Of a stretch of 64,000 nt of DNA, positions 1,812 to 28,590 are shown in pieces (positions within the stretch are counted from its first letter, which is position 1; the number at the start of each line of letters is the position of its first letter). Source of the stretch: Arthrobacter silviterrae (GTDB lineage: Bacteria; Actinomycetota; Actinomycetes; Actinomycetales; Micrococcaceae); assembly GCF_011045165.1 (NCBI RefSeq), contig NZ_JAAKZI010000001.1:186001-250000 (forward strand), read 5' to 3'. A program made the position numbers and the translations under genes. Under the pieces are notes generated by a model, which searched no databases, was not told the origin of the DNA, and saw only the letters and a program-made list of their open reading frames with translations.

Positions 1812-1945
1812 CCGACCCTCGGTTCCAAACGGGGGTGTTTTCTCCGACCCTCGGTTGCAAACAGGGGTGTTTTCCCCGACCCTCGGTTGCAATTGTGCGG
1901 AAGCGTTCCGTAAAAGTGCCCCGATTGCAACCGAGCGTCGGTTTA
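1812..1945. repeat. 32-bp tandem repeat cluster with inverted closing unit (copy 1)
   Basis: Three units start at 1812, 1844 and 1876, exactly 32 bp apart, each beginning CCGACCCTCGGTT. Units 1 and 2 end in a GGGGTGTTTTC block, while unit 3 diverges after its first 17 bases. An inverted unit lies at about 1911-1941 and pairs with unit 3 over about 18 bases with one mismatch (1876-1893 with 1924-1941). The inverted unit runs into the end of the YibE/F gene and the TAA stop lies at its edge. The rest of the space back to 1643 shows nothing else recognisable. Confidence 0.85.
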
Positions 1946-3175
1946 AGCGGGGTGGGGTTCGGTGCTTCTGCCAGTGGCCTTGACGACGGCGACCGCCACC
2001 GCCGTCGTGACCGGAATGGCCAGGACCAGGCCAATGGAACCGACCAGGATGCGGACCACTTCCTCGGCCAGTTCCGCACTGGTGAGTGTGTCGATGAGCG
2101 GGCGGTCATACAGGGAAACAATCAGCAGCACCGGCAGCGCCCCGCCCGCATAGGCAAACGCGATGGTGTAGACGGTGGAGGCGATGTGGTCCCGGCCAAT
2201 GCGCATGGCGGAGGTGAACAATTCCCGCGCGCCAGTCCGTGGGGCCAGTTCGTACAGTTCCCACACTGCGGACGACTGGGTGATGGTGACGTCGTTGAGC
2301 ACGCCCAGCCCCGAGATGATGAGCCCGCACAGGATCATTCCCGAGAGCGACATGCCGTTCGTCAGGCTCAACAGCTGGTAGGCGTTGTCGCCCTTGGTTC
2401 CGGTCAGCGCGGCCGCATCAACGGCCCAGCCGGCCAGTGCCGCCGTCGCCCCTAAACCGAATAGGGTGCCCAAAAGGGCCGTGGACGTGCGGGCGGAAAA
2501 GCCGTGGGCGAAGTACAGCACGCCAAACATGATCGCGGACGACCCGACCACTGCAATCAGGAGGGGAGGTTTCCCTTCAGCCAGGGCCGGCAGGATGAAC
2601 CACGCCAGCACGGCAAAGGCGCCGCCCAGCCCCAGCATGGCCCGGAGCCCCCGCCACCTGGCCACAGCCACCACCACCACGGCGTAGAGGAAGGCCAGCA
2701 GGCCCAGTGGCACCGTGCGGACAAAGTCGATGAACACATATTGCGGGCCCATGGGCGCCACGCCCGCAGAGGCTTGGGGCAGCTTGAGGTACCGGATGTC
2801 CTCGCCCGCCTTCACGCCGCGGGCTTGGACAATGTCCGGGGTGACCATGACGGGGACCGCGGCACCGCCCTTGACGGCCGCGTACGCCGTCAGGCACTTT
2901 TGGCCCGCTGCGCCCGGGCAGTCTTCCGCAACGGTCCGCTGCACCGTGCCGGTGGCGAACGAGGCGCCGGGCGCCGCCGCATAAGGATTTCCTGCCGAGG
3001 GCGCGGAGGTGCCGCCGCCGGGCCACAGCATCACCATTGCGGCCACTGTCAGGACTGCCAGCGGGATGAGGATCCACCCCAGCAGCACTACGGCCCGACG
3101 GCGGACCACCTGGCGCCGCCGCAGCTCGGAGCGGTTCAACAGGGAGTCGTCACCGTGCGAATGGGTGTGGCCCAT
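1943..3175 (-). CDS. YibE/F family multi-pass membrane protein
   Basis: About 410 residues. The N-terminus is short and histidine-rich (GHTHSHG), followed by one membrane helix, an external domain of about 100 residues, then six or seven hydrophobic helices. The pattern, with motifs NDVTITQSSAVWEL and RIGRDHIASTVYTIAFAYAG, is characteristic of the YibE/F family, whose members are predicted inner-membrane transporters or channels of unknown substrate. I chose the ATG at 3175, because AAGGA lies 11 bases ahead; a TTG three codons earlier is the alternative. The stop codon lies inside an adjacent repeat cluster. The neighbouring histidine-rich protein could be a partner, but that is only proximity. 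Confidence 0.85.
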   Translation of the reverse strand: MGHTHSHGDDSLLNRSELRRRQVVRRRAVVLLGWILIPLAVLTVAAMVMLWPGGGTSAPSAGNPYAAAPGASFATGTVQRTVAEDCPGAAGQKCLTAYAAVKGGAAVPVMVTPDIVQARGVKAGEDIRYLKLPQASAGVAPMGPQYVFIDFVRTVPLGLLAFLYAVVVVAVARWRGLRAMLGLGGAFAVLAWFILPALAEGKPPLLIAVVGSSAIMFGVLYFAHGFSARTSTALLGTLFGLGATAALAGWAVDAAALTGTKGDNAYQLLSLTNGMSLSGMILCGLIISGLGVLNDVTITQSSAVWELYELAPRTGARELFTSAMRIGRDHIASTVYTIAFAYAGGALPVLLIVSLYDRPLIDTLTSAELAEEVVRILVGSIGLVLAIPVTTAVAVAVVKATGRSTEPHPA

Positions 3176-3238
3176 GGCTGTCAAGATCCTTCGGCTAGGC
3201 AGGGGGAGGTAGTGTTATCACTCCTCAACGGGGGCGGG

Positions 3239-4231
3239 CTACTCCCCGACGACGAACGTTTCGTCACCGCGAACCTTGGCTGCTCCCACCTCGATCATGG
3301 GGTTGACCACGGCGGCCAGTGCCTCCATGGAGTCGTCCAGCTCCAGCAGTACCGGGTACTGGTGGGTGATCAGCGCCAGCAGGTCGTAGACGGCCTGGAC
3401 TGCAGCGTCATGACCCAGCGAGGGCTCCACGCCGAGAAAAACCTCGGACGCCTGGGCCGGTGCATCAGGCTCCCCGGGCACCACATGCCCCTGGGAGTAG
3501 CTGACGGCAAACGCCTCGATGCGCCCCTTCCTGCTGGGCTGCACATCGGAACCGAACGCGCTGGCCGGTTCGGCGCGGAGCACCAGGGCCCCGTGGGCGC
3601 CCGTGAGGTCGTCCAGGAACATCCGCTGCACCGTGCCCGGGGACAGCGTGCCGGTGGGGTCCCACTGGTTCACTGCCTCGTAGTAGCGGCCCACAATGTC
3701 GGTCAGCTCCACCGAACCGGTGGCCAAATCCTGCACTCGTGCGGTGGCCTCCTCTTCGGTGCCGGAGCCGAACACCGGCAGCTTCAGCGCGCCGGGGCCC
3801 ACCTCCACCACCCTGTTCCGCTGCAGCACAGCCAACCCCATCGCCGACGCAAAGCCGGCGCCTGAGGTGCCGGGGGCAACCTTGGTGCGCAACGCCGTCG
3901 TGCCTGCCAGGCCGGAGGCAACAGCGGCGGCCGCTTCAGCGCGCAGCATGGTCAGCAGGGTGGCGCCCACGCCGGCGCGGCGGTGGTCCGTGGCAACTTC
4001 CACGTAGGCCCACAGGCGCGCCGGGTGCAGCGTGGTGGAATACACCACCGCTGCCGCAACCGGGATGCCCTGGTCCTCGGCCACAATGGTGCGCCGCCAC
4101 GGGCCACGGTCGGATTCCGGTGCCAGCGCGGCGCGGAACGCCCCGGCCGCAGCGGACTCGGCGTCGCCCCAGATTTCCCGCAGGGCCAGGTCGTCGCCGT
4201 CGCGCCACGGCCGGAAGGAAAGTTCAGCCAT
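3239..4231 (-). CDS. GNAT-like N-acetyltransferase
   Basis: A 330-residue protein whose N-terminal half has the GNAT fold core. It starts with LSFRPWRDGDD, and motif A (VATDHRRAGVGATLLTML, about residues 78-95) supplies the pyrophosphate-binding R-x-x-G-x-G/A loop for acetyl-CoA. The C-terminal half may be a second, degenerate GNAT module. The substrate is unknown. The ATG lies two bases after the glyQS stop codon (TAG then GAATGG), so the gene is almost certainly translated with glyQS. That linkage suggests a housekeeping role, but nothing in the sequence identifies it. Confidence 0.85.
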   Translation of the reverse strand: MAELSFRPWRDGDDLALREIWGDAESAAAGAFRAALAPESDRGPWRRTIVAEDQGIPVAAAVVYSTTLHPARLWAYVEVATDHRRAGVGATLLTMLRAEAAAAVASGLAGTTALRTKVAPGTSGAGFASAMGLAVLQRNRVVEVGPGALKLPVFGSGTEEEATARVQDLATGSVELTDIVGRYYEAVNQWDPTGTLSPGTVQRMFLDDLTGAHGALVLRAEPASAFGSDVQPSRKGRIEAFAVSYSQGHVVPGEPDAPAQASEVFLGVEPSLGHDAAVQAVYDLLALITHQYPVLLELDDSMEALAAVVNPMIEVGAAKVRGDETFVVGE

Positions 4232-4233
4232 TC

Positions 4234-5619
4234 CTAGGCACCCAGGAGGCGGGAAGCGAGGTACGCCTGGACCTTGTCGAGGGAGACACGCTCCTGGCTC
4301 ATGGTGTCGCGCTCGCGGATGGTCACGGCGTTGTCTTCGAGCGTGTCGAAGTCAACGGTGATACAGAACGGCGTGCCGATCTCGTCCTGGCGGCGGTAGC
4401 GGCGGCCGATGGCGCCGGCGTCGTCAAACTCGATGTTCCAGTGCTTGCGCAGCTGGTTGGCGAGGTCCTTGGCCTTGGGTGAGAGCTCCTCGTTGCGGGA
4501 GAGCGGGAGCACTGCGGCCTTGACGGGGGCCAGGCGCGGGTCCAGCTTGAGCACGGTGCGCTTGTCCACGCCACCCTTGGCATTGGGGGCCTCGTCCTCA
4601 ACATAGGCATCCACCAGGAAGGCCATCATGGAGCGGGTGAGGCCGAAGGAAGGCTCAATGACGTAGGGAGTGAAACGTTCGCCCGTGGCCTGGTTGAAGT
4701 AGTTCAGCTCGGTGCCGGAACCCTTCGTGTGGGAGCTCAGGTCATAGTCGGTGCGGTTTGCAACACCCATGAGCTCGCCCCAGCCGGAGCCCTTGAAGCC
4801 GAACTGGTATTCAAAGTCAATGGTGCCGGCGGAGTAGTGGGCGCGCTCGTCCTCGGGGACGTCGAAGCGGCGCATGTTTTCCGGGTTGATCCCCAGGTCC
4901 ACGAACCAGTCCCAGCACAGCTCGACCCATTCCTTGAACCACTTATCAGCGTCCTCGCCGGGCACAAAGAACTCAATTTCCATCTGCTCAAATTCACGCG
5001 TGCGGAAGATGAAGTTCCCGGGGGTGATCTCGTTCCGGAACGCCTTGCCGATCTGGCCGATCCCGAACGGCGGCTTCTTCCGGGAGGTGGTGAGCACGTT
5101 GTTGAAGTTCACGAAAATGCCCTGGGCGGTTTCCGGCCGCAGGTAGAACAGCCCTGCGGCGGCATCCACCGGGCCAAGGTACGTCTTGACCAGGCCGGAG
5201 AACAGCTGGGGTTCGGTCCACTGGCCCTTGGTGCCGCAGTCGGGGCACACAATGTCATCCATGCCGTTCTCGGGCGGGCGCTTCTTCTTTGCCTCATACG
5301 CCTCGATGAGGTGGTCCTGGCGGTGGCGCTTGTGGCACTGGGTGCACTCCACCAGCGGGTCGGTGAAGGTTTCCACGTGGCCGGATGCCTCCCACACGGC
5401 CTTGGGCAGGATGATGGAGGAGTCCAGGCCCACCATGTCCTCGCGGCCCCGCACAAACGACTGCCACCATTCGCGCTTGATGTTTTCCTTCAGCTCCACG
5501 CCGAGGGGGCCGTAATCCCAGGCCGACCGCGATCCACCGTAAATCTCACCGGCCTGGAACACAAAGCCGCGGCGCTTCGCGAGGGAAATGACCTGGTCAA
5601 GCTTGGATTGGGGGGCCAC
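4234..5619 (-). CDS. glyQS: glycine--tRNA ligase, single-chain alpha2 type
   Basis: A 461-residue class II aminoacyl-tRNA synthetase that charges tRNA-Gly in the cytoplasm. Seen in the sequence are the N-terminal [15 protein letters not shown] segment typical of this enzyme, two CxxC pairs (CTQCHK and CPDCGTK) of the zinc-containing insertion, the motif 2 region [13 protein letters not shown] followed by [11 protein letters not shown], and motif 3 [10 protein letters not shown]. The C-terminal anticodon-binding domain is present. Length matches the bacterial alpha2 form rather than the two-gene glyQ/glyS form. It starts at GTG 5619 with AGGAG upstream. No T-box leader was recognisable. Confidence 0.97.
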
Positions 5620-5744
5620 AGAGTACTCCTAATAATTACGAGGCCGCTGGGTGCGGTCCGTCCGTGGACTAGCCTACCGGTCCGTGGCGCGGGGCAGGAA
5701 TTGCTCCGGCGGGCGGTGAACCCGGCTTGAGTCCCGCGCCTGCA

Positions 5745-5830
5745 CTTCTCCCTGGGGCCAAACCCAGCCCGAGTTTTGCCCCCGGTGCACCCGGGGCACA
5801 ACCCACCGCGGGTTTTGCCCCACAGAGAAG
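5745..5830. repeat. 86-bp nested palindromic element, copy A
   Basis: This intergenic element contains four alternately oriented copies of a short TGGGGCAAAACCCA-like unit, around a central 8-bp palindrome GGTGCACC. The outer arms (CTTCTC...GGGGC with GCCCC...GAGAAG) and the inner arms both pair, so the whole can fold as one long imperfect cruciform. A second copy of identical length (86 bp, about 79% identical by eye) lies at 9747-9832. It sits between the glyQS promoter and the 3' end of the lactonase gene. The remainder of 5620-5895 holds the glyQS leader and nothing else I recognise. Confidence 0.85.
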
Positions 5831-5895
5831 TTGGCCGGCGGATGATGTACGACGCCGGCCCCCGGCTTGCGCCGCCTGCTCACCTTGGGCAGGGG

Positions 5896-6981
5896 TCAGG
5901 CAAGCACGACGCAGGTAGGGCTGCCGAATGCCACTGTTTGGACCGGTTCGGTACCGGGCAGGCCGTTTTCGTCGAGGTCGAAGACGGCAACATTGTTGGA
6001 GAGCTGGTTGGCCACGTAGATCTTGTGGTTCGCCACGGCGAAGTGACGGGGCCAGTTGCCGCCTGAGGGCACGAGGTTGAGAAATACCGGCGGCCGGGGC
6101 GAATCCCCTTCCACGCCCGAAACGTCCAGCACCACCAGCGTGTTGGGCCCGCGGACGGCGGCGTAGAGCTTGGTGCCGTCCTCCGAGAGCTGGATGTGGG
6201 AAGGGAAGAACTCCTTGGCCAGCCCAATCTCCCCTTCGGTCGGCGCAAGGGGCACCTTGAACAGCCACCGCCAGAAGTGTCCCGTCCCCTTGCCCGGTGC
6301 CATTTCCGCACGTCGGAGCACGTGCAGGTGTCCGTCCAGTTCACCCGCCACGAACATGAATCCGCGCTTCAGCGACACGTGGCGGGGCCCCGTGCCCGGC
6401 GGCAGTTCCGCAGAGTCAGCCAGCACGCGCGAATCCGCAAAGTAGACGTCCACCCTGTCGGCCCCCAGGTCCGACACGAGCACTGTGCCCCACGGCGTGG
6501 CCGTCACCTGGTGCGCGTGGGACTCCCCCTGCCGTCCGGTGACGGGCCCGGAACCAGGGTGGCTGAGCAGCTCCGGCCGTGCGGTGCCGGCCTCACTGCC
6601 GGGCTCAGTGCCTGGCTGGGCCCCTTCCAGCACCGCGGCCAGCGGCAGCACCGCAGCCGTCCCGGACGAATAGTTGGCCACCCAGACACTCCCGCCCAGG
6701 TGGATCACGTGGCAGGGGTCGGCCCCACCGGTGGATGCCCGCCCCAGGACCGCAAGCGTTTCGGGATCAAGGGCGGCGACCGTGCCGTCTTTCAGCTCCT
6801 CGACGGCAAGCAGCACCCCGCCGGCGCCGGCCAGGAATGACGCATTGCGGACTCCGGCTGCCTCCGCGGTCCGCTCCCCCACGGTACCGTCGTCCTGCAG
6901 GGCAAAGCGCTGCACGCCGGGCCCGGCTCCGTAGCCCGCCTCGGTGTAGCCGCTGACAATCAATGCGCCGGTTGTCGGCAT
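5896..6981 (-). CDS. lactonase family beta-propeller protein (6-phosphogluconolactonase-like)
   Basis: A protein of about 361 residues with no signal peptide. It shows the repeating blade pattern of the Pgl-type lactonase family, with motifs such as HAHQVTATPWGTVLVSDLGAD and WPRHFAVANHKIYVANQLSNN. The family includes E. coli Pgl (6-phosphogluconolactonase) and muconate-cycloisomerase-like fungal proteins; many bacterial members have untested substrates. I chose ATG 6981 because AGGAG lies eight bases upstream; a GTG three codons earlier is possible. It is a single gene that diverges from the S4-domain gene. The assignment to the fold is firm, the assignment to the oxidative pentose phosphate pathway is only likely. 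Confidence 0.85.
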   Translation of the reverse strand: MPTTGALIVSGYTEAGYGAGPGVQRFALQDDGTVGERTAEAAGVRNASFLAGAGGVLLAVEELKDGTVAALDPETLAVLGRASTGGADPCHVIHLGGSVWVANYSSGTAAVLPLAAVLEGAQPGTEPGSEAGTARPELLSHPGSGPVTGRQGESHAHQVTATPWGTVLVSDLGADRVDVYFADSRVLADSAELPPGTGPRHVSLKRGFMFVAGELDGHLHVLRRAEMAPGKGTGHFWRWLFKVPLAPTEGEIGLAKEFFPSHIQLSEDGTKLYAAVRGPNTLVVLDVSGVEGDSPRPPVFLNLVPSGGNWPRHFAVANHKIYVANQLSNNVAVFDLDENGLPGTEPVQTVAFGSPTCVVLA

Positions 6982-9366: not shown

Positions 9367-9436
9367 GGGCCACATTAAGCGGTGCCGTTGGGTGCCGGGT
9401 CCGAACTCCCTCCGAATCCCCGTTGAATTTTTTCCC

Positions 9437-9598
9437 CCGACGCTCCATCACTTTTTGCGGTCTTTTCCCCGACGCGGCATCACTTTCTGCGGTCTTTTCC
9501 CTGACGCTCGGTTCCAACCGGGGCACCTCCTGCGCACCGTCCCGCAGTTGATGAGGGAGGGTTGGCAAAAACACCCCGAAAGGTGATGGAGCGTCACT
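9437..9598. repeat. 32-bp tandem repeat cluster with inverted closing unit (copy 2)
   Basis: Units start at 9437, 9469 and 9501, again exactly 32 bp apart, with the anchor CCGACGCTC or a close variant and a TCTTTTCC end. The third unit switches to the GGTTCCAAC core seen in the cluster at 1812. An inverted unit at about 9564-9598 reads, on the other strand, TGACGCTCCATCACC and then GGGGTGTTTTT, the latter block being shared with units 1 and 2 of the 1812 cluster. So the two clusters are one family with an exchangeable middle. Confidence 0.85.
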
Positions 9599-9656
9599 CG
9601 GTGCTGGGCCGGGCGAAGCACAGTCCTCTGCGCGTGATGTGCTTGACCGCCCCCCG

Positions 9657-9745
9657 CACTGGCAATGCTCCACCCGCCCCCCACTGGCAATGCTCCACCC
9701 GCCTGCGCTGGCCACGCTGCACCCGCCCAGCACTGGCCATGATGG
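9657..9745. repeat. 24-25 bp tandem repeats
   Basis: Units begin at 9657, 9682, 9706 and 9731. The first two are nearly identical (CACTGGCAATGCTCCACCCG), the third is diverged (CGCTGGCCACGCTGCACCCG) and the fourth is partial (CACTGGCCATGATGG). The array runs straight into the 86-bp palindromic element. It lies in a roughly 970-bp non-coding space (9054-10025) that otherwise holds the transporter remnant and two other repeat types. Confidence 0.8.
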
Positions 9746-9746
9746 A

Positions 9747-9832
9747 CTTCTCGCTGGGGCAGAACCCATGCTGAGTTTTGCCCCGGGTGCACCGGGGGCC
9801 AAACTCAGCCTGGCTTCTGCCCCACAGGCAAG
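9747..9832. repeat. 86-bp nested palindromic element, copy B
   Basis: The second copy of the element at 5745-5830 has the same length and the same central GGTGCACC palindrome, with flanking GAGTTTTGCCCC and TGCCCCACAG blocks. About 18 of the 86 positions differ, mostly in unpaired or singly paired positions. The stretch from 9833 to 10025 carries the promoter and leader of the next gene, with no other structure I can recognise. Confidence 0.85.
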
Positions 9833-10025
9833 TTTGCGAACCGCCCGGCGAAGCCGCCCCGAAACCACCCCGCGCCGCGCACTCTGCCCCATCCCGGACC
9901 AAGACAGTGATGCTGGCCGGGCCAGGGAACCCTCGGCGGCATTGCCCGGTATGACGGCAGGCAAGCCGACTAGGATGGATGGAAGCGCGAATATTCCGCG
10001 CCCTGTCTTCGTGAAGAGGTGCGTT

Positions 10026-11744: not shown

Positions 11745-13067
11745 TTAGTTCACGGACGATTTTGCTGCGCGGAAACCTGCTTCAAGGTCGGCAATAATGT
11801 CGTCCACACCCTCCAGCCCCACGGACAGGCGCACCAGCCCCGGGCGGACGCCGGCTGCGAGCCGCTGTTCCTCGCTGAGCTGGGCGTGGGTGGTGGAGGC
11901 AGGGTGGATCACCAGCGAACGCACATCTCCGAGGTTGGCAACGTGCGAGTGCAGTTCCAGGCCGTCAACGAAGCGCTTGCCGGCCTCCAGCCCGCCCTTG
12001 ATGTCGAAGGAGACGATGGCGCCGGTCCCCTTGGGGCCGTACTTGCGTCCGCGCTCAAACCAGGGGCTGGACGGGATGCCTGAGTACGCAACGGCCTCCA
12101 CGTTTTCATTCGCTTCCAGCCACTGTGCGACCTTGACGGCGTTGCTGACGTGGCGCTCCACGCGCAGGCTCAGCGTCTCGATGCCCTGGGCGATGAGGAA
12201 GGCATTGAACGGCGAGATGGCCGAACCGAGGTCGCGCAGCAGCTGCACGCGGGCCTTGAGGATGTAGGCCAGGTTGGCGCCCAGGGCGCTGCCGACGCCG
12301 AGGTCGCGGGCGTAGACCAGCCCATTGTAGGTCTCGTCAGGGGTGTTGAAGCCGGGGAACTTTTCCGGATCCGCGGCGAAGTCAAACTTGCCGCCGTCGA
12401 CAATCACGCCGCCGATGGCCGTGCCGTGGCCGCCGAGGTACTTGGTGGCGGAATGGATGACGATGTCGGCACCCCACTCGAGGGGGCGGATCAGGTACGG
12501 GGTGGCGAGCGTGTTGTCCACGATCAGAGGCACGCCAGCCTCGTGGGCGATGGTGCTGATCTCCTCGAGGTTCAGCACGTCCTGGCGGGGGTTGGAGACG
12601 GTCTCGCCGAAGAAGGCCTTGGTGTTGGGCTTGACGGCCGCACGCCATTCGTCCAGGTTGTCGGGGTCGGAGACAAAGGTGACCTCGATGCCGAGCTTCT
12701 TCAGCGAGTGGGCCAGCAGGTTGAACGTGCCGCCGTAGACGCTGGGGCTGGAGACGATGTGGTCCCCGGCCTGGGCCAAGTTGAGGATGGCGAAGGTGGT
12801 GGCCGCCTGGCCCGAGGACAGCAGCAGGGCGGCAACGCCGCCTTCCAGGCTGGCAACGCGCTGCTCGACGGCGTCGGTTGTGGGGTTGCCGATGCGGGTG
12901 TAGATGGGCTCCAGCTCGGCCAGCGCAAAGCGGGCTGCGGCGCTTTCCGTGGACGGGAACACGAAGGACGTGGTCTGGTAGATGGGGAGGGCGCGTGCAC
13001 CTGTGGTGGCGTCCGGCTCCTGGCCTACGTGGATCTGACGGGTTTCAAATGACCAACCATTGCTCAT
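11745..13067 (-). CDS. metY: O-acetylhomoserine sulfhydrylase (PLP enzyme)
   Basis: A 440-residue Cys/Met-metabolism PLP enzyme that makes L-homocysteine directly from O-acetylhomoserine and sulfide. The pyridoxal-binding lysine is about K209 in IHSATKYLGGHG. SGQAAT, DNTLATPYLIRP and RIGNPTTD are the other signature segments, and the insert after the lysine is of MetY rather than MetB/MetC type. AAGGAG lies seven bases ahead of the ATG. It is the first gene of the metY-metX operon, downstream of a SAM-IV riboswitch, so expression should fall when S-adenosylmethionine is plentiful. Confidence 0.96.
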   Translation of the reverse strand: MSNGWSFETRQIHVGQEPDATTGARALPIYQTTSFVFPSTESAAARFALAELEPIYTRIGNPTTDAVEQRVASLEGGVAALLLSSGQAATTFAILNLAQAGDHIVSSPSVYGGTFNLLAHSLKKLGIEVTFVSDPDNLDEWRAAVKPNTKAFFGETVSNPRQDVLNLEEISTIAHEAGVPLIVDNTLATPYLIRPLEWGADIVIHSATKYLGGHGTAIGGVIVDGGKFDFAADPEKFPGFNTPDETYNGLVYARDLGVGSALGANLAYILKARVQLLRDLGSAISPFNAFLIAQGIETLSLRVERHVSNAVKVAQWLEANENVEAVAYSGIPSSPWFERGRKYGPKGTGAIVSFDIKGGLEAGKRFVDGLELHSHVANLGDVRSLVIHPASTTHAQLSEEQRLAAGVRPGLVRLSVGLEGVDDIIADLEAGFRAAKSSVN

Positions 13068-13152: not shown

Positions 13153-13271
13153 GGCCCGCGCTTGCACCGAAACCGGGTGGTTCGGTACCTGGTCTTCACC
13201 CGGGGCACCCCACCGCGGAAGGAGGGTTGCCGGCCAGCGAGCCGGGGCTTGTCGCTGGCGCTCATGACCTG
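13153..13271 (-). ncRNA. SAM-IV riboswitch
   Basis: Read on the minus strand, the leader begins GGTCATGAGCGCCAGCG and continues with AAGCCCCGGCT, GCCGGCAACCCTCC, GCGGTGGGGTGCCCCGGGTG and AAGACCAGGT. These are the conserved core blocks of the actinobacterial SAM-IV class, including the closing GGTC/GACC helix. After it come a short variable hairpin and the GCAAGCGCGGGCC element that forms the extra pseudoknot of this class. It lies about 85 bases upstream of metY. The RNA binds S-adenosylmethionine and represses the downstream methionine genes. Upstream 13272-13390 must hold the promoter; no strong -35/-10 pair stood out. Confidence 0.9.
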
Positions 13272-16022: not shown

Positions 16023-16661
16023 ATGCGAATGGATCATGTTTCTTACGCCTGTGAATCAGATGGATTGGCTGCCACCACGGAGCGAATCGCCACCGCCCTC
16101 GGGGTCGATGCAGTGCGTGGCGGAGTCCACCCGCGCTTCGGCACCCGCAATATGATCATTCCCCTCCTGGACCACCACTACCTGGAGGTCGTGGAGGTGC
16201 TTGACCACCCCGCCTCGGACAAGGCGCCGTTTGGCCAGGCCGTCCGGGCCCGCTCCCAGGCCGGCGGCGGCTGGATGGGCTGGTGCGTCGCCGTGGATGA
16301 TCTCACCCCCTTCGAGGAACGCCTGGGCCGCAGTGCCGTCCCCGGCAACCGCAAATTCCCCGACGGCCGCGAACTGGTCTGGCAGCAGATCGGCATCAAG
16401 GGCCTCATTGCCGACCCCCAGGTGCCCTACATGCTCAAGTGGGAGGGCGACCCGTCCCTGCACCCGTCCCTGGCCCGCCCGTCCACTGTCCGGCTGTCCT
16501 CGCTGACCATTGCGGGCAGCGCCGAACGCCTCACGGAGTGGCTGGGCGAGCCCGTGGAGCAGCCGCTGGAGGATGTGGCCGTGGAGTGGATCGCGCCCCG
16601 CGGCACGCCGGGCATCATGTCCGTCACCTTTGACACGGCGCACGGCCTGGTCACGATCTAG
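16023..16661 (+). CDS. VOC/glyoxalase-like domain protein
   Basis: A 212-residue cytoplasmic protein that begins MRMDHVSYAC. Its pattern fits the glyoxalase-like (VOC) superfamily: a first beta-alpha-beta unit with HVSY and the metal-ligand-like HHYLEVVEV, and a second unit with VRLSSLTIAG and VTFDTAH. VOC proteins use paired modules to coordinate a metal for isomerase, dioxygenase or resistance reactions, and the reaction here is unknown. No strong ribosome binding site precedes the ATG at 16023. It diverges from tex and faces the CPBP gene across a repeat-filled spacer. Confidence 0.8.
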   Translation: MRMDHVSYACESDGLAATTERIATALGVDAVRGGVHPRFGTRNMIIPLLDHHYLEVVEVLDHPASDKAPFGQAVRARSQAGGGWMGWCVAVDDLTPFEERLGRSAVPGNRKFPDGRELVWQQIGIKGLIADPQVPYMLKWEGDPSLHPSLARPSTVRLSSLTIAGSAERLTEWLGEPVEQPLEDVAVEWIAPRGTPGIMSVTFDTAHGLVTI

Positions 16662-16742
16662 CCTTTACGAAGCCATTTCGGCGGGCCCGACGGCGGCACC
16701 CACCCATTGCGGGAGGGTGCCGCTTTCGTGTGTCCCGACCAC

Positions 16743-16864
16743 GGCCCGCCCTCGAGTCAGCAGCGATGGCGGCTTAGACCCGCGCTAAGCCGCCATCGCT
16801 GCATACTGGCCGGACGGTCGGTGCCGCATGGGGACGTTTCAGCCGCAATCAGCCGAATCCGGGG
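16743..16864. repeat. 122-bp hairpin repeat, left copy
   Basis: It starts GGCCCGCCCTCGAGTCAGCA and contains a perfect 17-bp stem (16761-16777 with 16785-16801) around the 7-base loop ACCCGCG. It ends CAGCCGAATCCGGGGGC. The same 122-bp arrangement recurs 358 bp downstream at 17101-17222. It begins 80 bp after the end of the glyoxalase-like gene. Confidence 0.88.
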
Positions 16865-16895
16865 GCACCGCCGCGCGGGTGCGTCATGGGGACCC

Positions 16896-17088
16896 GAGTG
16901 TACAGATTCGGCGACACGCTATGTTGCCTGGGCGCCGAGTGTACAGATTCGGCGACACGCTATGTTGCCTGGGCGCCGAGTGTACATATTCGGCGGGCCG
17001 CGGCCGCCCCGACCCACCCCATCCGTACTCTCGGCGAGGATTCCTGGCCCCGACCCACCCCATCCGTACACTCGGCGACGAGATGCGC
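16896..17088. repeat. 41-bp tandem repeats in two inverted sets
   Basis: Set 1 has units at 16896, 16937 and a partial unit at 16978. Units 1 and 2 are identical, starting GAGTGTACAGATTCGGCGAC. Set 2 has units at 17007 and 17048, also 41 bp apart and starting CCCCGACCCACCCCATCCGT. Read on the opposite strand, set 2 shows the same CGCCGAGTGTAC anchor followed by a different body. The whole lies between the two 122-bp hairpin repeats. Confidence 0.88.
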
Positions 17089-17100
17089 ACCCTCGTCAAC

Positions 17101-17222
17101 GGCCCGCCCTCGAGTCAGCAGGGATGGCGACTAAGACCCGGGCTAAGTCGCCATCGCTGCATACTGACCGCAGTCAGGGCCGCCTGCGGACATTTCAGCC
17201 CCGCTCAGCCGAATCCGAGGGC
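17101..17222. repeat. 122-bp hairpin repeat, right copy
   Basis: The second copy of the element at 16743-16864. Its stem (17119-17135 with 17143-17159) has one G-C pair replaced by A-T, with both partners changed, plus two unpaired differences. The last 18 bases overlap the CPBP protease gene and supply its TGA stop at 17205-17207. Confidence 0.88.
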
Positions 17223-17984
17223 CGGGCCCAGCGTGAATGCGGCAATGTCCACCAGGGAGTGCGCCACCACCAGCGGCATGACGCGCCCATACTTTTTGTA
17301 CAGCCAGCAAAACAGCAACCCCATCGCAAAGTTGCCCACAAACGGCCCGAAGCCCTGGTACAGGTGGTAGCTGCCGCGGATCAGGGAGCTGGCCAGGACG
17401 GCAACAAGGGGCGTGAAGCCGATCCGCTCCAGCCGGTCCAGCAGCCAGCCCACCATGACCACTTCCTCCAGCAGGCCGTTGTGGATGGCGGAGAGCACCA
17501 GCACCGGCACCGTCCACCAGTACTGGTTCAGCGCACTCGGGATGATCTCCGTGGTGATCCCCAGCGCCCGCCCCGCCGCGTACAGCCCCAGCGACGGCAC
17601 GCCAATCACCACCAGCAAACCCAGGGCGCCGAGCCCGTCCCGGACGGGGCGCCGAAAGTCCAGCCCTATCCGGCGGAACACCGATTTTCCGGGCTCGGCG
17701 AGCAGATAAAACACCAAAAACACCGGCACCAGGGCAAAGAAAATATCCAGGATCTGGTACGTCAGGTCAAAAAATTCGCGGTTGCTGCGCACCACATTCA
17801 ACGTGGACGTGCCCTGGGCAATGGGCGCCCGGGACATCTTGTCCAGCAGCTGCACCACCGAGTACACCGCCGACTGCCCGAGCGAGAGCCCCAGCACCAG
17901 CAGCACCTCAAACACCAGGCGGCGCCTGTCCCGTTTCGCCAGTACGACGCCGACGCCTCCCGGGTCCGGCCGATTTTCACTCAT
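17205..17984 (-). CDS. CPBP-family intramembrane metalloprotease
   Basis: About 259 residues with six or seven hydrophobic helices. The CPBP (Rce1/CAAX protease-like) active-site motifs are present: HNGLLEEVVMVGW with the glutamate pair, RGSYHLYQG with the second-motif histidine, and HSLVDIAAF as the HxxxD-like third motif. The usual EExxxR has V-M-V-G in place of an arginine, a mild deviation. Members act in bacteriocin immunity, prenyl-protein processing or unknown membrane roles. ATG 17984 has GGAGG just upstream, so it is preferred over in-frame starts up to 18056. The last codons and the stop come from a repeat element. Confidence 0.85.
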   Translation of the reverse strand: MSENRPDPGGVGVVLAKRDRRRLVFEVLLVLGLSLGQSAVYSVVQLLDKMSRAPIAQGTSTLNVVRSNREFFDLTYQILDIFFALVPVFLVFYLLAEPGKSVFRRIGLDFRRPVRDGLGALGLLVVIGVPSLGLYAAGRALGITTEIIPSALNQYWWTVPVLVLSAIHNGLLEEVVMVGWLLDRLERIGFTPLVAVLASSLIRGSYHLYQGFGPFVGNFAMGLLFCWLYKKYGRVMPLVVAHSLVDIAAFTLGPALGFG

Positions 17985-22490: not shown

Positions 22491-22494
22491 GGCC

Positions 22495-23501: not shown

Positions 23502-23540
23502 AATGATCATTGATGATTAAAACAATAGATAAACAATCAT
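23502..23540. promoter_or_regulatory. AT-rich candidate operator between the amino-sugar operon and GH101
   Basis: In otherwise GC-rich DNA this 39-bp stretch is AT-rich. It holds the perfect palindrome AATGATCATT (23502-23511) and an inverted pair ATGATT/AATCAT (23513-23518 with 23535-23540) around AAACAAT repeats. It lies about 95 bp upstream of the SIS gene and about 230 bp upstream of GH101. DeoR-family operators are commonly AT-rich repeats of this kind. The role is inferred. Confidence 0.5.
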
Positions 23541-23640
23541 GTTAACGCCATGGGATCGTGAGGAAACACTGCCCCGCAAGCGTCACGGCGCGAAAATCCC
23601 GATCTTGTAATCCACGCCACAACCGTGGAATACTCGACGC

Positions 23641-23654
23641 TGTTATGCATAACA
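23641..23654. promoter_or_regulatory. perfect 14-bp palindrome upstream of GH101
   Basis: TGTTATGCATAACA is self-complementary over all 14 bases and lies 117 bp before the GH101 start. It is of the size and symmetry of a repressor operator. No matching copy was found elsewhere in the window. Together with 23502-23540 it accounts for the 364-bp space 23407-23770. Confidence 0.5.
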
Positions 23655-23770
23655 ATGCTTCGGGCTGCCACCCGGACCGGCAACCCCGGCCAGGATGGCA
23701 GCCCGGGCACCCCGTCCCAGGCAGCAGTCCGGGGCACCCTTGCAATTACCTTCCCGCAAAGGACAACCAC

Positions 23771-26700
23771 GTGAAATCCCCGCAACCCTGCAAGACGACG
23801 GCCCCGCCGCCGCATCTTCGCCTGACGCTGCACCGCGCCACCGCCGCCGCGGCCACGCTGGCACTGCTGGCTTCCCTGAGCGTCGGCATTGGGGCCGCCG
23901 CCCAGGCCGCCCCGGACAGCTCCGGCGTGCCCATTTCCCCCTCCCAGTACACGCTGATCGGCGCTGATTCCCAGTCCCCCGCCTACCCGGCCCCGCCGGC
24001 ACTGGACGGGACCGCCGCCGGCGCGTTCGACAACGACTACTCCTCGCAGTGGACGGTGGCCTACACGGTGGTCAACGGCGTGGGCGTGGCCGCCCCGCTG
24101 CCCCACTGGATCTCCTGGGACGTGGGCGGCTCCTTCACCCTGACGGGCCTCGACTACTCCGTCAAGAACCAGTCCAACGGCCCCGTCAAGAACTACCAGG
24201 TCTTCGCCACGAATGACGCCGCCGTGGCCAACAACCCGGCCGGCAACTGGGGCGCTCCCGTGGCCAAGGGCTCCCTGGTCCAGCCCACCTCCAACACCCA
24301 GGTCCAGACCATCCTCTTCGACAGCCCGGTCAAGGCCCGCTACGTAAAGTTTGAGGCGGACAGCACCATCAACGGCAGCAACAATGTCTCCGCCTCGGAG
24401 CTGCGCGTCAGGGCCACGGGGGACACCACCCCTGCGCCTGTGCCCCCGGCCCCGCCCGCGGATCCGGCCACGCCCGTCACCATCAGCAATGGCAAGGGGC
24501 TGGACGTCGCCGTCGGGAAGGAATTCCCCCAGGTCATCTCCTACTCGCTGGACGGGAAGTCGCTGGCCGGCCAGGCGGACAAGCTCAGCAATTTTTCCCT
24601 GAACGGCAAGAACTACGCGGCCACCACCACCATGACGGCCAGCGGGGCCACGGCCACGTACAGTTCAACGTTTGCTGACTTCCCCAACCTGACCATTGAG
24701 TCCTCGCTGACCGCCACCGCGGCGAACACCGTGGAATTCGCTGTCACCAAGATTTCCGGCAGCGCCGCGGCCACCGTGGACCAGCTCGCCATCCCCAACC
24801 AGTCGCTCGTGTCCGTGGACTCCGGCGACCCGCACTCCCAGCTGGCCCGGACGAAGATCTCCACCGACTCCACCACCACGGCCGACCAGTTCACCGCCGT
24901 CACCGCCGCCACCAAGGCGGACAAGTCCGACGTCGGCACCCCCTACGGCTTTGTCAGCAACTCCCAGCTCTCCGCCGGACTGATGACGAACGCCACGGAC
25001 GATGCCGCCCAGGATTCCGGCACCAACTGGAACACCCGCCTGCAGTCACGGATTATCGACGCCGGCAACGGCGCCAAGCGGGCCGAACTCTCCGTGGGTA
25101 ACTACACCTACGCAGCCAAGGGCGCCACCGATCCGCGCGTGCAGTTCTACACGCTGCCCAAGACCACAGTGGTGCTTTCCGCGGATGCCAACAATGACGG
25201 CAATGTCACGTGGGAGGACGGCGCCATTGCCTACCGCAACGCGATGACCGCACCGGCCGGCGCCGCCCGCGTCCCCGAGCGCGTGGTCCAGCACATCCCG
25301 TTCAACTTTGCCTCGCAGGCCACCAACCCCTTCCTGAAGACCCTGGACAACGTCAAGCGGATTTCCCAGTCCACCGACGACCTGGGCCAGTGGGTCCTGG
25401 AAAAGGGCTACGCCAATGAAGGCCACGACTCCGGCCACCCGGACTACGGCGGAGACTACAACACCCGGGCCGGCGGCCTCGCGGACCTGAACACGCTCGC
25501 CTCCTCCGGCGCCGCGTACAACGCCGACATGGCCGTGCACGTTAACGTCACGGAAGCGTACCCGCAGGCCAAGAGCTTCAGCTCCGGCATGATTTCCGGC
25601 CAGGTCAACGGCTGGGACTGGCTGAACCAGTCGTACCACATCGACCAGCGCAACGACCTTGGCACGGGCGCCATCCTGGACCGCTTCGCCGAGCTCCGCA
25701 AGGAAGCCCCCGGCATCAAGACCGTCTACATTGACGCCTACTACTCCAGCGGATGGCTCTCTGACCAGCTCGCCACGCAGCTGCACAAGATGGGCTTCGA
25801 GGTGGCCACGGAATGGGCGTACAAGTTCGAGGGCAACTCCATCTGGTCGCACTGGGCCAATGACAAGAACTACGGCGGTGCCACGAACAAGGGCATCAAC
25901 TCCAACATTGTCCGCTTCATTGCCAACACCCAGCGCGATGTCTGGAACACGGACCCGCTGCTGGGCGGCGCGCAGCTGAAGGACTTTGAGGGCTGGACGG
26001 GCCAGGACAACTGGAACAACTTCTACAACAACATCTTTGTGAACAACCTGCCCACCAAGTTCATCCAGCACTTTGACGTGACCAACTGGGACTTTGGCAA
26101 GTCCGCCACGCTCACTGACGGGGTCGCCATCAAGATGGTCAACGGCCAGCGCCAGATCACCATGGGCAACGCCGTGGTGCTCGACGGCGGCACCTACCTG
26201 CTGCCGTGGCAGGACGCCGTGGACAACAGCCAGACCACCTCGCCACTGCACGCCGACAAGATGTACTTCTACTCGGCAGCCGGCGGCACCACCACGTTCA
26301 CGCTGACCAGCCAGTTCGCGAACAAGCGCAACTTCACGCTGTACAAGCTCACCGACCAGGGCCGCACCAAGGTGGCCGACGTCATCAACAGCAACGGCAC
26401 CGTGACGCTCACCGGAGACAAGGGCGTCCCGTACATCCTTGCCCCGAACGGCGACCAGCCCGTGAACAAGACCGCCAACTACGGCGACGGCTCCCTGCTG
26501 GTTGACCCGGGCTTCAACGCCGGCAACCTCGATGCCTGGAACCCGACCGGCGGCGCCGCCACCGCACGCACAGCGACAGGTGACAATGTTGCGGTGCTGG
26601 GGAACTCGGCGTCGTCCATCTCCCAGTCCGTGAAGAAGCTGGAGGCGGGCAAGAAGTACACGCTGAGCGCCAACGTGGAGATCGCCGCGGGCAGCCGCCG

Positions 26701-28366
26701 CGCCGTCACGCTGGGGGTGGCCGGGACCGGCCTGAGCGCCGCCAACACCTTTGACATCACCCCGCAGCAGAACATGGTGGCGGCCGATGCCAAGCAGGGC
26801 ACGTACTCGCAGCGGGCCTCGGTGCAGTTCACCGCACCCGTCAACCACAAGGTGGACGTGTCCATCAGCGCCGTGGCCGGTGCCGCGGCCGTGACCTTGG
26901 ACGACGTGCGCATCATGGAGGACACCACCACGCCGGTGGCCGTGCCTCCGGGCAGCCCGGGCACGCTGGTGGCCAGCGCCAACTTTGAGGGCAACCAGCC
27001 CGGCTGGGGCCCGTTTGTGAAGGGCGACGCCGGCGGATCGACAGACCCGCGCACCAGCATCAGCGACCTCCATGCACCGTACACGCAGAAGACCTGGAAG
27101 AACACGTACAGCCCGTACAACTCCGGTTCACTGAACGGGCAGGCCGTCGATGACGTGCTGAACGGGGACCACTCGCTGAAGGCGCACGAGGAAAACACCG
27201 GCCTGGTGTACCGCACGGTGCCGGCCACGGTGCCGTTCACGGCCGGGCATTCCTATACGGTATCGTTCAAGTACCAGACGAACGTGGCCGGGCAGTGGCA
27301 GTGGGTCACGGGCGCGGACACCGTTGCCAACGGCAAACTGACGTCCAAGGACCTCAAGGACGAAACCATGGCCCCGGCCCTGGACACCGCAACGTACTCG
27401 CGGACGTTCACGGCAGGCTGCGGCGACAACTGGGTGGGCCTGCGCAAGACCGGCGGGGCCAACGGCACCGACTTCATCCTGGACGACTTCACCGTCACGG
27501 ACCTCGGCGCCGTCAGCGGCGGCGCCGCCTGCGCTTCCGTGGCAGGGCCCGCCAACGCGGACCTGAATCCCGGCACCACGAACAGCTTCGTGACAACGTT
27601 CACCAACAACGAGACCACGGATGCCACGAACGTCGCCATGTCGCTGGGCACGCTGCCCGCCGGCTGGAGCGCCCAGGTGGCCACCGCTGGCGGAAACCTG
27701 GTGGGCACCGTCAAGCCGGGCGCCACGGCCACGACCACGTGGATCATCACCACGCCGGCCGGCGCCGCGGGCACAACGGCGGCAATCCACCCTTCGGCAA
27801 CGTACTTCAATGACTGCGTCACGAAGACAGTGGATTCGGATTCCAACCTGGCCGTCGCCACCCGGGCGATGGTGCCGACATCGAGTATGACGGCGACTGC
27901 GGACTCGGAAAACATGACGACTGGACCTGGCGCAGGGCCCGTCGCCAACGTCCTGGACGGCGATGCCAGCACCATCTGGCACACCGAATGGAATCCAACC
28001 ATCACGAACTACCCGCACTGGGTGCAGCTGGACCTCCACGGTGAATACACCGTCAGCGGCTTCGGCTACCAGGACCGCCAGTCCGGCGGGCAGAATGGCA
28101 AGGTGAAGAACTACACCATCTTCACCTCGATGGACGGCGCCACGTGGACCCAGGCGGCCACGGGCAATCTGGTGGACGCGACGGGAATGCAGTTCATCGC
28201 GTTCCCGGCTGTCCAGGCCAAGTTTGTGAAGTTCCAAGCCAACAGCGCCCTCAACGGATTGCAGTTCGCTTCGGCCGCCGAGATGCGCGTCTATGGCACC
28301 GGCGGCTCCGCGCTGACCGGCTTCGCACCGGCCACGCGCCCGGCAGACACGGCGTGCACACCGTAG
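23771..28366 (+). CDS. secreted endo-alpha-N-acetylgalactosaminidase, GH101, multidomain
   Basis: About 1531 residues from GTG 23771 (AAAGGA seven bases upstream). A signal peptide ends near AQAAP. An F5/8-type C module lies at about 57-210, then a beta-sandwich and the GH101 barrel at about 235-900. The barrel has TVYIDAYY (D655, candidate nucleophile), ATEWAY (E681, candidate acid) and SIWSHWANDKNYGG, matching the pneumococcal enzyme with a loop six residues shorter. Further binding modules lie at about 906-1060 and 1071-1240, an NPCBM/NEW3 domain at about 1258-1345, and a second F5/8C module to the end. GH101 enzymes release Gal-beta-1,3-GalNAc from core-1 mucin-type O-glycans. There is no sortase motif, so it is probably released. 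Confidence 0.95.
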   Translation: MKSPQPCKTTAPPPHLRLTLHRATAAAATLALLASLSVGIGAAAQAAPDSSGVPISPSQYTLIGADSQSPAYPAPPALDGTAAGAFDNDYSSQWTVAYTVVNGVGVAAPLPHWISWDVGGSFTLTGLDYSVKNQSNGPVKNYQVFATNDAAVANNPAGNWGAPVAKGSLVQPTSNTQVQTILFDSPVKARYVKFEADSTINGSNNVSASELRVRATGDTTPAPVPPAPPADPATPVTISNGKGLDVAVGKEFPQVISYSLDGKSLAGQADKLSNFSLNGKNYAATTTMTASGATATYSSTFADFPNLTIESSLTATAANTVEFAVTKISGSAAATVDQLAIPNQSLVSVDSGDPHSQLARTKISTDSTTTADQFTAVTAATKADKSDVGTPYGFVSNSQLSAGLMTNATDDAAQDSGTNWNTRLQSRIIDAGNGAKRAELSVGNYTYAAKGATDPRVQFYTLPKTTVVLSADANNDGNVTWEDGAIAYRNAMTAPAGAARVPERVVQHIPFNFASQATNPFLKTLDNVKRISQSTDDLGQWVLEKGYANEGHDSGHPDYGGDYNTRAGGLADLNTLASSGAAYNADMAVHVNVTEAYPQAKSFSSGMISGQVNGWDWLNQSYHIDQRNDLGTGAILDRFAELRKEAPGIKTVYIDAYYSSGWLSDQLATQLHKMGFEVATEWAYKFEGNSIWSHWANDKNYGGATNKGINSNIVRFIANTQRDVWNTDPLLGGAQLKDFEGWTGQDNWNNFYNNIFVNNLPTKFIQHFDVTNWDFGKSATLTDGVAIKMVNGQRQITMGNAVVLDGGTYLLPWQDAVDNSQTTSPLHADKMYFYSAAGGTTTFTLTSQFANKRNFTLYKLTDQGRTKVADVINSNGTVTLTGDKGVPYILAPNGDQPVNKTANYGDGSLLVDPGFNAGNLDAWNPTGGAATARTATGDNVAVLGNSASSISQSVKKLEAGKKYTLSANVEIAAGSRRAVTLGVAGTGLSAANTFDITPQQNMVAADAKQGTYSQRASVQFTAPVNHKVDVSISAVAGAAAVTLDDVRIMEDTTTPVAVPPGSPGTLVASANFEGNQPGWGPFVKGDAGGSTDPRTSISDLHAPYTQKTWKNTYSPYNSGSLNGQAVDDVLNGDHSLKAHEENTGLVYRTVPATVPFTAGHSYTVSFKYQTNVAGQWQWVTGADTVANGKLTSKDLKDETMAPALDTATYSRTFTAGCGDNWVGLRKTGGANGTDFILDDFTVTDLGAVSGGAACASVAGPANADLNPGTTNSFVTTFTNNETTDATNVAMSLGTLPAGWSAQVATAGGNLVGTVKPGATATTTWIITTPAGAAGTTAAIHPSATYFNDCVTKTVDSDSNLAVATRAMVPTSSMTATADSENMTTGPGAGPVANVLDGDASTIWHTEWNPTITNYPHWVQLDLHGEYTVSGFGYQDRQSGGQNGKVKNYTIFTSMDGATWTQAATGNLVDATGMQFIAFPAVQAKFVKFQANSALNGLQFASAAEMRVYGTGGSALTGFAPATRPADTACTP

Positions 28367-28389
28367 CCTGACCCGCTCGTCGAGCCCAC

Positions 28390-28458
28390 AAGGCCCCGGC
28401 GGTTGGCTTGTCGAAACCCGGTTTTTACGGAACTCGACAGGCCAACCGCCGGGGCCTT
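28390..28458. terminator. 25-bp near-perfect stem between convergent genes
   Basis: The arms at 28390-28414 and 28434-28458 pair over 25 bases with a single mismatch, around a 19-base loop containing GGTTTTTACGG. The stem starts AAGGCCCCGGCGGTTGGC. It lies 23 bp after GH101 and before the convergent hutI, so it could terminate transcription from both sides. The stem lacks a flanking U tract. Confidence 0.6.
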
Positions 28459-28462
28459 CGCC

Positions 28463-28590
28463 GTCGAGGTTGGAGATCACCACCTCCCCGGCCGTTGAGG
28501 TTGGAGATCACCACCTCCGCCATGGCGGATGAGCGGTGGTTATCTCGAATCTCAACGGGGGGGAGGCGTGGTGATCTCGAATCTCAACGA
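28463..28590. repeat. 31-32 bp tandem units in two inverted sets
   Basis: Two forward units, GTCGAGGTTGGAGATCACCA at 28463 and GTTGAGGTTGGAGATCACCA at 28494, are 31 bp apart. They are followed by two inverted units ending ATCTCGAATCTCAAC, with CTCAAC at 28551 and 28583 (32 bp apart). Inner and outer pairs can each form a stem with a few mismatches. The array fills the space between the terminator-like stem and the hutI stop codon. Confidence 0.85.

What the first reader, a model, noticed from the sequence alone, without database searches (positions are those of the whole stretch)
1812..28590. A class of intergenic clusters: fixed-period tandem units capped by inverted units with an exchangeable body
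Four sites (1812-1945, 9437-9598, 16896-17088, 28463-28590) share one architecture: two or three units at 31-32 or 41 bp spacing, then inverted units. In each, a short anchor is conserved while the rest of the unit switches between versions, for example GGTTGCAAAC versus CATCACCTTT inside the 32-bp unit. The sites lie at gene ends, two of them between convergent genes. Tandem plus inverted copies can fold into long stems, so they may act as bidirectional terminators or recombination sites. I know of no named family like this.
Basis: seen in the sequence. Interest (0 to 1): 0.72.

Follow-up and report, generated by a model that had tools for sequence, protein, structure and literature searches.

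The report
Phased repeat arrays at gene ends
In some soil bacteria of the genus Arthrobacter, about 22-base one-way sequence tags are lined up at an almost exact 31-32 base spacing just after the ends of genes, which looks like a row of docking sites for an unknown protein that may stop transcription there.

Summary
The window is from an Arthrobacter. Families A (32-bp), B (41-42-bp) and C (31-bp) recur through the genome: 80 clusters of two or more units in the 1.25 Mb examined. None of the 74 with both flanking genes known lies in a divergent gap, and 89 of 101 nearby gene ends meet a unit in the gene's own orientation.

A unit is a conserved, one-way core of about 22 bp plus a spacer whose length is kept although its sequence changes between loci. 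Across two genera the A spacing is exactly 32 bp in 144 of 150 listed doublets, while species differ in the core. Distances between facing cores tend to step by about one DNA turn, with exceptions.

Long stems form at the window sites, but hairpins are not the common factor: 23 gene ends with sense-only arrays show no hairpin excess.

My preferred reading is phased, directional protein-binding arrays that end or insulate transcription. The protein and the termination are inferred, not shown. The main rival is a dispersing REP-like repeat: whole clusters are copied between loci, although no REP transposase (Y1_Tnp) was found. I found no description in the papers searched.

The parts
1813..1908 (+). 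Site 1: three forward A1 units (starts 1813, 1845, 1877; 32-bp period), the third truncated
1909..1940 (-). Site 1: inverted A1 unit, in sense with and 2 bp from the stop of the YibE/F gene 1943-3175(-)
   Evidence: facing distance 64
9438..9533 (+). Site 2: two A2 (CATCAC) units at 9438 and 9470 and one A1-like unit at 9502, 32-bp period
9565..9596 (-). Site 2: inverted A2 unit; facing distance 95. The block 9434-9621 recurs at 91% identity elsewhere in the genome (C12)
16893..16996 (+). Site 3: three forward B units (starts 16893, 16934, 16975; 41-bp period), the third cut short by the centre
17014..17076 (-). Site 3: two inverted B units (cores ending at 17035 and 17076; 41 bp apart); facing distance 61
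28463..28514 (+). Site 4: two forward C cores (28463, 28494; 31 bp)
28536..28588 (-). Site 4: two inverted C cores (28536-28556, 28568-28588; 32 bp), 7 bp from the stop of the amidohydrolase gene 28596-29798(-)
28390..28458 (.). Ordinary 25-bp-arm hairpin between the GH101 gene end and the site 4 array (separate from the array)
   Evidence: pair I6
1943..3175 (-). YibE/F-like gene whose 3' end abuts site 1
16152..16661 (+). Glyoxalase-like gene converging on site 3
17205..17984 (-). CAAX-protease-like gene converging on site 3
23771..28366 (+). GH101 endo-alpha-N-acetylgalactosaminidase gene converging on site 4
28596..29798 (-). Amidohydrolase-family gene converging on site 4

Best explanation
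Each unit is a directional binding site of about 22 bp for a sequence-specific DNA-binding protein, repeated at about three (A, C) or four (B) turns of B-DNA so that the bound proteins sit on the same face and touch. Arrays start right after a stop codon and point with the gene. Facing arrays serve the two genes of a convergent pair. The nucleoprotein array blocks or releases RNA polymerase arriving from its own gene, so it acts as a directional terminator or insulator, sometimes helped by the hairpin that facing units form. Shown here: the core/spacer anatomy, the kept spacing, the 3'-end position and orientation, the lack of hairpin excess in sense-only arrays, and species-specific core versions. 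Inferred: that a protein binds, which protein it is, and that transcription stops there.
For: Spacing: A 32 bp in 89 of 93 adjacent pairs (50 clusters), C 31 bp in 24 of 27 (14 clusters), B 41-42 in 7 of 7. Between-loci identity 0.70-0.91 in the cores, 0.40-0.57 in the spacers.

In 13 other genomes of two genera, a doublet search that allowed spacings of 20-44 bp gave 189 matches vs 1 control; 144 of the 150 listed rows are exactly 32 bp apart (the others 20, 26, 30, 31, 33, 36), with species-specific bodies.

Facing distances: C 44, 55-57, 64-65. Distinct A values from all genomes give R 0.70 at 10.57 bp vs 0.44 at 31.7, 0.17 at 15.85 and 0.40 at 7.93; off-register A values alone P 0.003. Twelve distances from other genomes have their highest R, of 11 periods tried, at 10.5 (0.68).

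Position: of 80 clusters 39 convergent, 35 co-directional, 0 divergent, 6 at edges. In 490 kb of end-to-end stretches without the window: 8 of 42 convergent, 3 of 126 co-directional, 0 of 66 divergent gaps (convergent vs divergent P 3e-4). Sense at 89 of 101 gene ends within 60 bp; 97 of 113 neighbouring gene ends within 60 bp, median 15.

Hairpin z below -2 at 2 of 23 sense-only ends vs about 47 of 110 and 44 of 110 array-free ends. At the site 4 position relatives carry, by eye, hairpins or a different 32-bp array.
Against: No protein, footprint or RNA 3'-end data. The phase test was chosen after seeing the distances, and clusters are not independent because whole clusters are copied. One homologous group (C41, C19, C21, C11) has facing distances 102, 136, 128 and 136, which do not differ by whole turns. 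The C distances have too few levels to pick a period (R 0.82-0.89 for 9 to 11 bp), and pooling all 22 distances from other genomes, many of them alike, gives R 0.63 at 10.5 with 0.4-0.5 at several other periods. In G019 the C-type facing pairs are continuous long hairpins, as an RNA or cruciform element would be. Outermost arms share the A sub-type in 24 of 27 clusters. Two-armed clusters do have hairpin excess. Twelve of 101 gene ends meet an antisense unit (ten convergent, two co-directional). C spacings of 30, 45 and 55 occur in relatives. Nineteen of 23 genus genomes lack the exact A1 core, and only about 20-50 kb of each of 17 other genus genomes was scanned for further array families. 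Spacings under about 20 bp could not be seen by the unit scan.
Confidence: 0.4

Rival explanations
1. Mobile or selfish extragenic repeats of a REP/MITE-like kind: units and whole clusters are copied from place to place and survive where they do least harm, after stop codons. Tandem copies come from slippage, and any host use is incidental.
For: Whole clusters recur at other loci (site 2 block at 91% over 188 bp; others at 79-97% over 186-285 bp, some with flank). Distribution is patchy and species-specific. Unit number varies between orthologous loci.
Against: Spacer length stays at 32 bp in unlike spacers and in two genera, which passive repeats need not do. Strong sense orientation (89 of 101). 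No Y1_Tnp (RAYT-type) gene found in this genome or in the other three with the exact A1 core.
Confidence: 0.3
2. RNA-level bidirectional terminators: the two arms pair in the transcript and the long stem ends transcription in both directions.
For: The four window clusters fold well (z -3.0 to -9.9). Two-armed clusters have hairpin excess (median z -1.75, n = 58 gene ends). The A core is followed by a conserved T run. Orthologous gene ends carry hairpins (by eye). Outer arms share sub-type in 24 of 27. G019 C-type elements are mostly single long hairpins.
Against: Sense-only arrays have no hairpin excess. No pair-like covariation among the top column pairs within units. Opposite arms not clearly more alike than units of different clusters (only the A2 spacers, 0.47 against 0.43, P 0.03). 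A stem does not need a 32-bp period.
Confidence: 0.2
3. Supercoil or nucleoid sites: the arrays are bound by gyrase or an architectural protein that absorbs positive supercoils where convergent genes meet, like E. coli BIME-2.
For: Enrichment in convergent gaps (8 of 42 vs 3 of 126 co-directional, P 8e-4). REPs are described as gyrase, Pol I and IHF sites that are frequent between convergent genes (PMC1525189, passages seen).
Against: Does not by itself explain sense orientation in co-directional gaps or the start a few bases after the stop codon.
Confidence: 0.08
4. Recombination or inversion sites.
For: Inverted and direct copies exist; copy number differs between species at orthologous loci.
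Against: No inversion seen; the genes around the four sites are found together in the fetched stretches of most relatives. Recombinases were not searched for, apart from Y1_Tnp.
Confidence: 0.02

Closest known systems
REP / BIME elements (with RAYT transposases)
   Same: Extragenic, many copies, species-specific, at gene 3' ends and between convergent genes, inverted copies in clusters
   Different: Sense-only arrays show no palindrome signal; runs of direct units at a fixed 31-32 bp; forward block then inverted block rather than alternation; no Y1_Tnp gene found
Mycobacterial MIRU/VNTR loci (recalled; the searches gave no paper that I used)
   Same: Direct repeats between genes with variable copy number in an actinobacterium
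   Different: MIRU units are recalled as 46-101 bp and not as a 22-bp core with a free spacer; not compared by sequence here
Bidirectional intrinsic terminators
   Same: Position between convergent genes; hairpins in two-armed clusters; relatives carry such hairpins at the same place (by eye)
   Different: Sense-only arrays lack hairpin excess; fixed period; repeated sequence shared by many loci
Protein roadblocks (Reb1, orientation-dependent Rap1, Tus; review PMC10310618, passages seen)
   Same: Would explain directional sites after genes
   Different: Those are sites of known proteins; here no protein is known and the sites form evenly spaced arrays (a likeness in working, not membership)
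TAACTGA intergenic direct repeats of Beggiatoaceae (PMC4679880, abstract and outline seen)
   Same: Short intergenic direct repeats, patchy across lineages, function open
   Different: Heptamers, mostly just upstream of start codons, not gene-end arrays with a 32-bp period

Membership tests
REP/BIME (RAYT-associated) | Extragenic, high copy, at 3' ends of genes | tested here: met
REP/BIME (RAYT-associated) | Unit is an imperfect palindrome / stem-loop | tested here: not met
   families A-C of this genome: sense-only arrays have median hairpin z -0.16; no pair covariation in the top column pairs of A1, A2 and C. The G019 C-type facing pairs are palindromic as a whole
REP/BIME (RAYT-associated) | Cognate Y1 transposase (RAYT) in the genome | tested here: not met
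   PF01797 found in 2 of 23 genus genomes, not in G000, G006, G013 or G022
REP/BIME (RAYT-associated) | Alternating inverted units (BIME) | tested here: not met
   forward block precedes inverted block in 45 of 47 mixed clusters; 33 clusters are one-way
Intrinsic terminator | GC-rich hairpin followed by a U run | tested here: inconclusive
   two-armed clusters have hairpin excess, sense-only arrays do not; T run within A units
Intrinsic terminator | Transcripts end there | not testable with these tools
   needs RNA 3'-end sequencing
Protein roadblock terminator | Protein bound to the site | not testable with these tools
   spacing is compatible
Protein roadblock terminator | Sites oriented with respect to transcription | tested here: met
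   89 of 101 gene ends sense
MIRU/VNTR | Tandem intergenic repeats whose copy number varies | tested here: met
   between species only: site 1 orthologues 2, 3 and 4 inverted units; G019/G018 site 4 3 and 5 units
MIRU/VNTR | Sequence relation to mycobacterial MIRU units | not tested
   no MIRU sequence was compared
Rfam RNA families | Match to a curated family at the four sites | tested here: not met
   whole-window scan at E up to 1 gives 3 matches, none at the four sites

The most novel reading that the evidence does not exclude
Some Micrococcaceae end or insulate many genes with a DNA-protein system: a protein assembles on helically phased, one-way arrays after the stop codon and stops RNA polymerase coming from that gene, a bacterial counterpart of the protein-bound terminator arrays of eukaryotic ribosomal DNA (recalled). 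The geometry is kept while the recognised sequence drifts from species to species.
Probability: 0.25. Interest if true: 0.85.

Novelty: new variant of a known kind. Interest (0 to 1): 0.6.

Why it matters
Gene-end repeats of bacteria are usually palindromes explained by RNA hairpins or by REP transposases. Here the conserved things are a one-way core and a spacing close to a whole number of DNA turns, which points to a protein on DNA. If termination is confirmed, these bacteria would have a widespread factor-bound, sequence-specific terminator, and the species-by-species change of core would make it possible to follow a protein and its genome-wide sites changing together. If it is only a dispersing repeat, it is still a large repeat class with an unusual fixed geometry that I did not find described in the listings of my paper searches.

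Tried and rejected
Looked for a hairpin inside the unit by column covariation: none among the strongest pairs. I first thought that the two arms of a cluster were of independent type; counting showed the same A sub-type in 24 of 27, so that argument was dropped for the unit-identity comparison, in which opposite arms differ from units of different clusters only slightly and in both directions (A1 cores 0.82 against 0.86, P 0.001; A2 spacers 0.47 against 0.43, P 0.03). RAYT/REP membership rejected. Rfam: nothing at the sites. A strict helical-phase rule is not claimed: four homologous clusters have 102, 128, 136 and 136. The 25 single-unit matches were dropped from all cluster counts; 8 lie inside predicted genes and 1 (family B) in a divergent gap; the unit thresholds let through about two shuffled matches per family. 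The listings of four paper searches on Arthrobacter or Micrococcaceae repeats were empty or irrelevant, and two on MIRU gave nothing that I used. RepRanger (PMC12306157, one passage seen) lists REP counts for Arthrobacter livingstonensis; the rest was not read.

Limits: genes are from my own caller, not an annotation. The 1.25 Mb was partly chosen around hits. One search gave counts for 594 kb that still held the window and one stretch picked for a hit; one search repeats them on 490 kb of end-to-end stretches without these, but the contigs were picked after the hit lists were seen. Unit numbers at orthologous loci were read by eye.
Full report
WHAT IS THERE. They belong to three sequence families. 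A has a 32-bp period with core CGACSCTC followed by GGTTGCAANCGGGG (A1) or CMTCACYTTTCGCGG (A2). B has core GCCGAGTGTACNNAT and a 41-42-bp period. C has core GTYGARRTTSGAGATMACCAC and a 31-bp period. Shuffled controls, reversed-pattern controls and an unsupervised lag scan exclude chance.

HOW MANY AND WHERE. In 1.25 Mb of this 4.29-Mb genome (partly chosen around hits) position-weight scans give 284 units: 80 clusters of at least two units, holding 259, and 25 singles. Of the 80 clusters 53 are family A, 18 C, 7 B and 2 mixed; 47 are two-armed and 33 one-way. Flanks of the 80: 39 convergent, 35 co-directional, 0 divergent, 6 at contig or stretch edges. In 490 kb of end-to-end stretches without the window, 8 of 42 convergent, 3 of 126 co-directional and 0 of 66 divergent gaps of at least 60 bp hold a cluster (convergent against divergent P 3.4e-4; all gaps with a gene end against divergent P 0.04). 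Clusters lie a median of 15 bp from the neighbouring gene's 3' end (97 of 113 within 60 bp). In convergent pairs a median of only 40 bp of the gap lies outside the cluster. At gene ends within 60 bp the nearest unit is in the gene's orientation in 89 of 101. Of the 12 others, 10 are in convergent gaps with a one-way array that is in sense with the opposite gene, and 2 are co-directional. Forward units precede inverted ones in 45 of 47 mixed clusters; the two exceptions involve family B matches.

ANATOMY. Within arrays the period is 32 bp in 89 of 93 A pairs, 31 bp in 24 of 27 C pairs and 41-42 bp in all 7 B pairs. Between loci the cores are 0.79-0.91 identical for A and C (0.70 for B, 3 comparisons) but the spacers only 0.40-0.57. 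So the length of the spacer is kept while its letters are not. Facing distances between innermost cores are also restricted: C 44, 55-57 and 64-65; B 61 in all 6; A mostly 64 and 94-96, with 84, 102, 105, 126-128, 135-136 and 159 (45 clusters). For A, with values from other genomes added, the distances fit one DNA turn better than the 32-bp unit alone (distinct values: R 0.70 at 10.57 bp, 0.44 at 31.7, 0.17 at 15.85, 0.40 at 7.93; off-register values alone P 0.003). Twelve distances from other genomes have their highest R, of 11 periods tried, at 10.5 bp (0.68). With ten more, mostly alike G019 elements, R is 0.63 at 10.5 and 0.4-0.5 at several other periods. The C values alone do not pick a period. 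I call this a tendency: it was noticed after the fact, clusters are partly related, and one homologous group (102, 128, 136, 136) breaks it.

NOT SIMPLY HAIRPINS. All four window clusters fold, as any inverted repeat does. But 23 gene ends carry sense-only arrays, and these have no hairpin excess (median z -0.16; 2 of 23 below -2), while array-free gene ends do (medians -1.34 and -1.35; 0.43 and 0.40 below -2, of 110 sampled each from 116 and 261; Mann-Whitney P 0.02 for each; Fisher P 0.002 and 0.003 on rounded counts). Opposite arms of a cluster are not clearly more alike than units of different clusters: A1 cores slightly less (0.82 against 0.86), A2 spacers slightly more (0.47 against 0.43, P 0.03), the rest without significant difference. 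Against this, the outermost arms share the A sub-type in 24 of 27 clusters, two-armed clusters do have hairpin excess (median z -1.75), and in G019 the C-type elements are mostly single long hairpins.

RELATIVES. The exact A1 core occurs in 4 of 23 genus genomes. A wider A core occurs in force in G000 (54) and G019 (45), and 6-10 times in three genomes of a second genus, among 149 family genomes of which 8 are of this genus; 23 of the 149 have any match, most at the level of the control. A doublet search that allowed spacings of 20-44 bp in 13 picked genomes gave 189 matches in 11 of them, against 1 in the reversed control. Of the 150 listed, 144 are exactly 32 bp apart; the others are 20, 26, 30, 31, 33 and 36. 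Species differ in the body: G014 CTCTATCACCTTCCGGGG, G006 CTCCTTCAGATCCGGGG, G018/G019 CTCGCTCACTCCACGTCGTG, G083 CTCTCTCACATCCC, G105 CTCCCTCACCTTTGG. In 396 genomes of the order (2 of this genus), 11 have the 32-bp doublet. Those with more than three matches are this genome and five of the second genus; G401, of another family, has three of a different body. The exact 15-base C core is in 3 of the 8 genus genomes and, once, in 1 of the 141 others. At the site 1 position G013, G000 and G022 carry one forward unit, a centre and 2, 3 and 4 inverted units (read by eye). At the site 4 position relatives carry hairpins, or in G019/G018 a sense-only 32-bp array of 3 or 5 units (by eye). The same place is thus filled by exchangeable gene-end devices.

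DISPERSAL. Whole clusters are copied between loci: site 2 at 91% over 188 bp to C12, others at 79-97% over 186-285 bp, some with flanking sequence. No Y1 transposase (RAYT type) was found in this genome or in the other three with the exact A1 core. How copies spread is unknown.

MECHANISM. I commit to phased, directional protein-binding arrays that end or insulate transcription (0.4). Steps shown: core plus kept spacer length, position, orientation, absence of hairpin excess in sense-only arrays, and change of core with conserved geometry. Steps inferred: a protein, its contacts, and polymerase stopping. Roadblock proteins that stop polymerase, some depending on orientation, are known (Reb1, Rap1, Tus; PMC10310618, passages seen). 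The main rival is a REP-like dispersing repeat (0.3), then RNA hairpin terminators (0.2), then supercoil sites (0.08).

KNOWN OR NEW. REP elements share the location and species-specificity (PMC1525189, passages seen) but differ in the palindromic unit, the alternation and the transposase. No Rfam family matches the sites. I found no description of this class in the searches listed under Tried and rejected and Why it matters; I saw listings, not whole papers, and most subscription journals are not held. I rate it a new variant of a known kind (gene-end extragenic repeats); the protein-terminator reading would be more than that.

Noticed in passing
window 13153-13269 (-): SAM-IV riboswitch, 116 bits, E 7.8e-21, upstream of the 11745-13067(-) gene; ordinary.
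   Followed up: no
window 55310-55412: Fourth repeat family (D): inverted pair around CACTTAACGTGGATG; nine more such pairs in the 808-kb sample, all with starts 26 bp apart and none in a divergent gap, plus one single match inside a gene.
   Followed up: partly
window 16736-16877 and 17094-17233: Site 3 lies between two direct copies (77-90%) of an intergenic block that contains a long hairpin; relative G016 has one such hairpin at the same place and no B array in the flank printed, as if the array arrived with a duplication.
   Followed up: partly
window 5754 and about 9707-9872; G000 C96:59946, C96:72631: Family with 39-bp period around GGGGCAAAACTCG..CGGGTTTTGCCCC; relative G005 has a similar 39-bp unit with changed letters (GGCGCAAAACTT..AGTATTGCGC).
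   Followed up: no
G000 contigs C2, C12, C19, C96 (ends) and C52 (start): Five contig ends of the draft lie within about 220 bp of an A or C unit, so the arrays may break assemblies.
   Followed up: no
G401 C2:37398, C4:30291, C37:33715: Genome of another family with three 32-bp doublets of a different body (ACGCTCGGTNGG..GGCAACCA), perhaps an independent array family.
   Followed up: no
L284 (G019 C1:975752-976147): Four forward and four inverted 32-bp units about 170 bp apart, facing each other.
   Followed up: no
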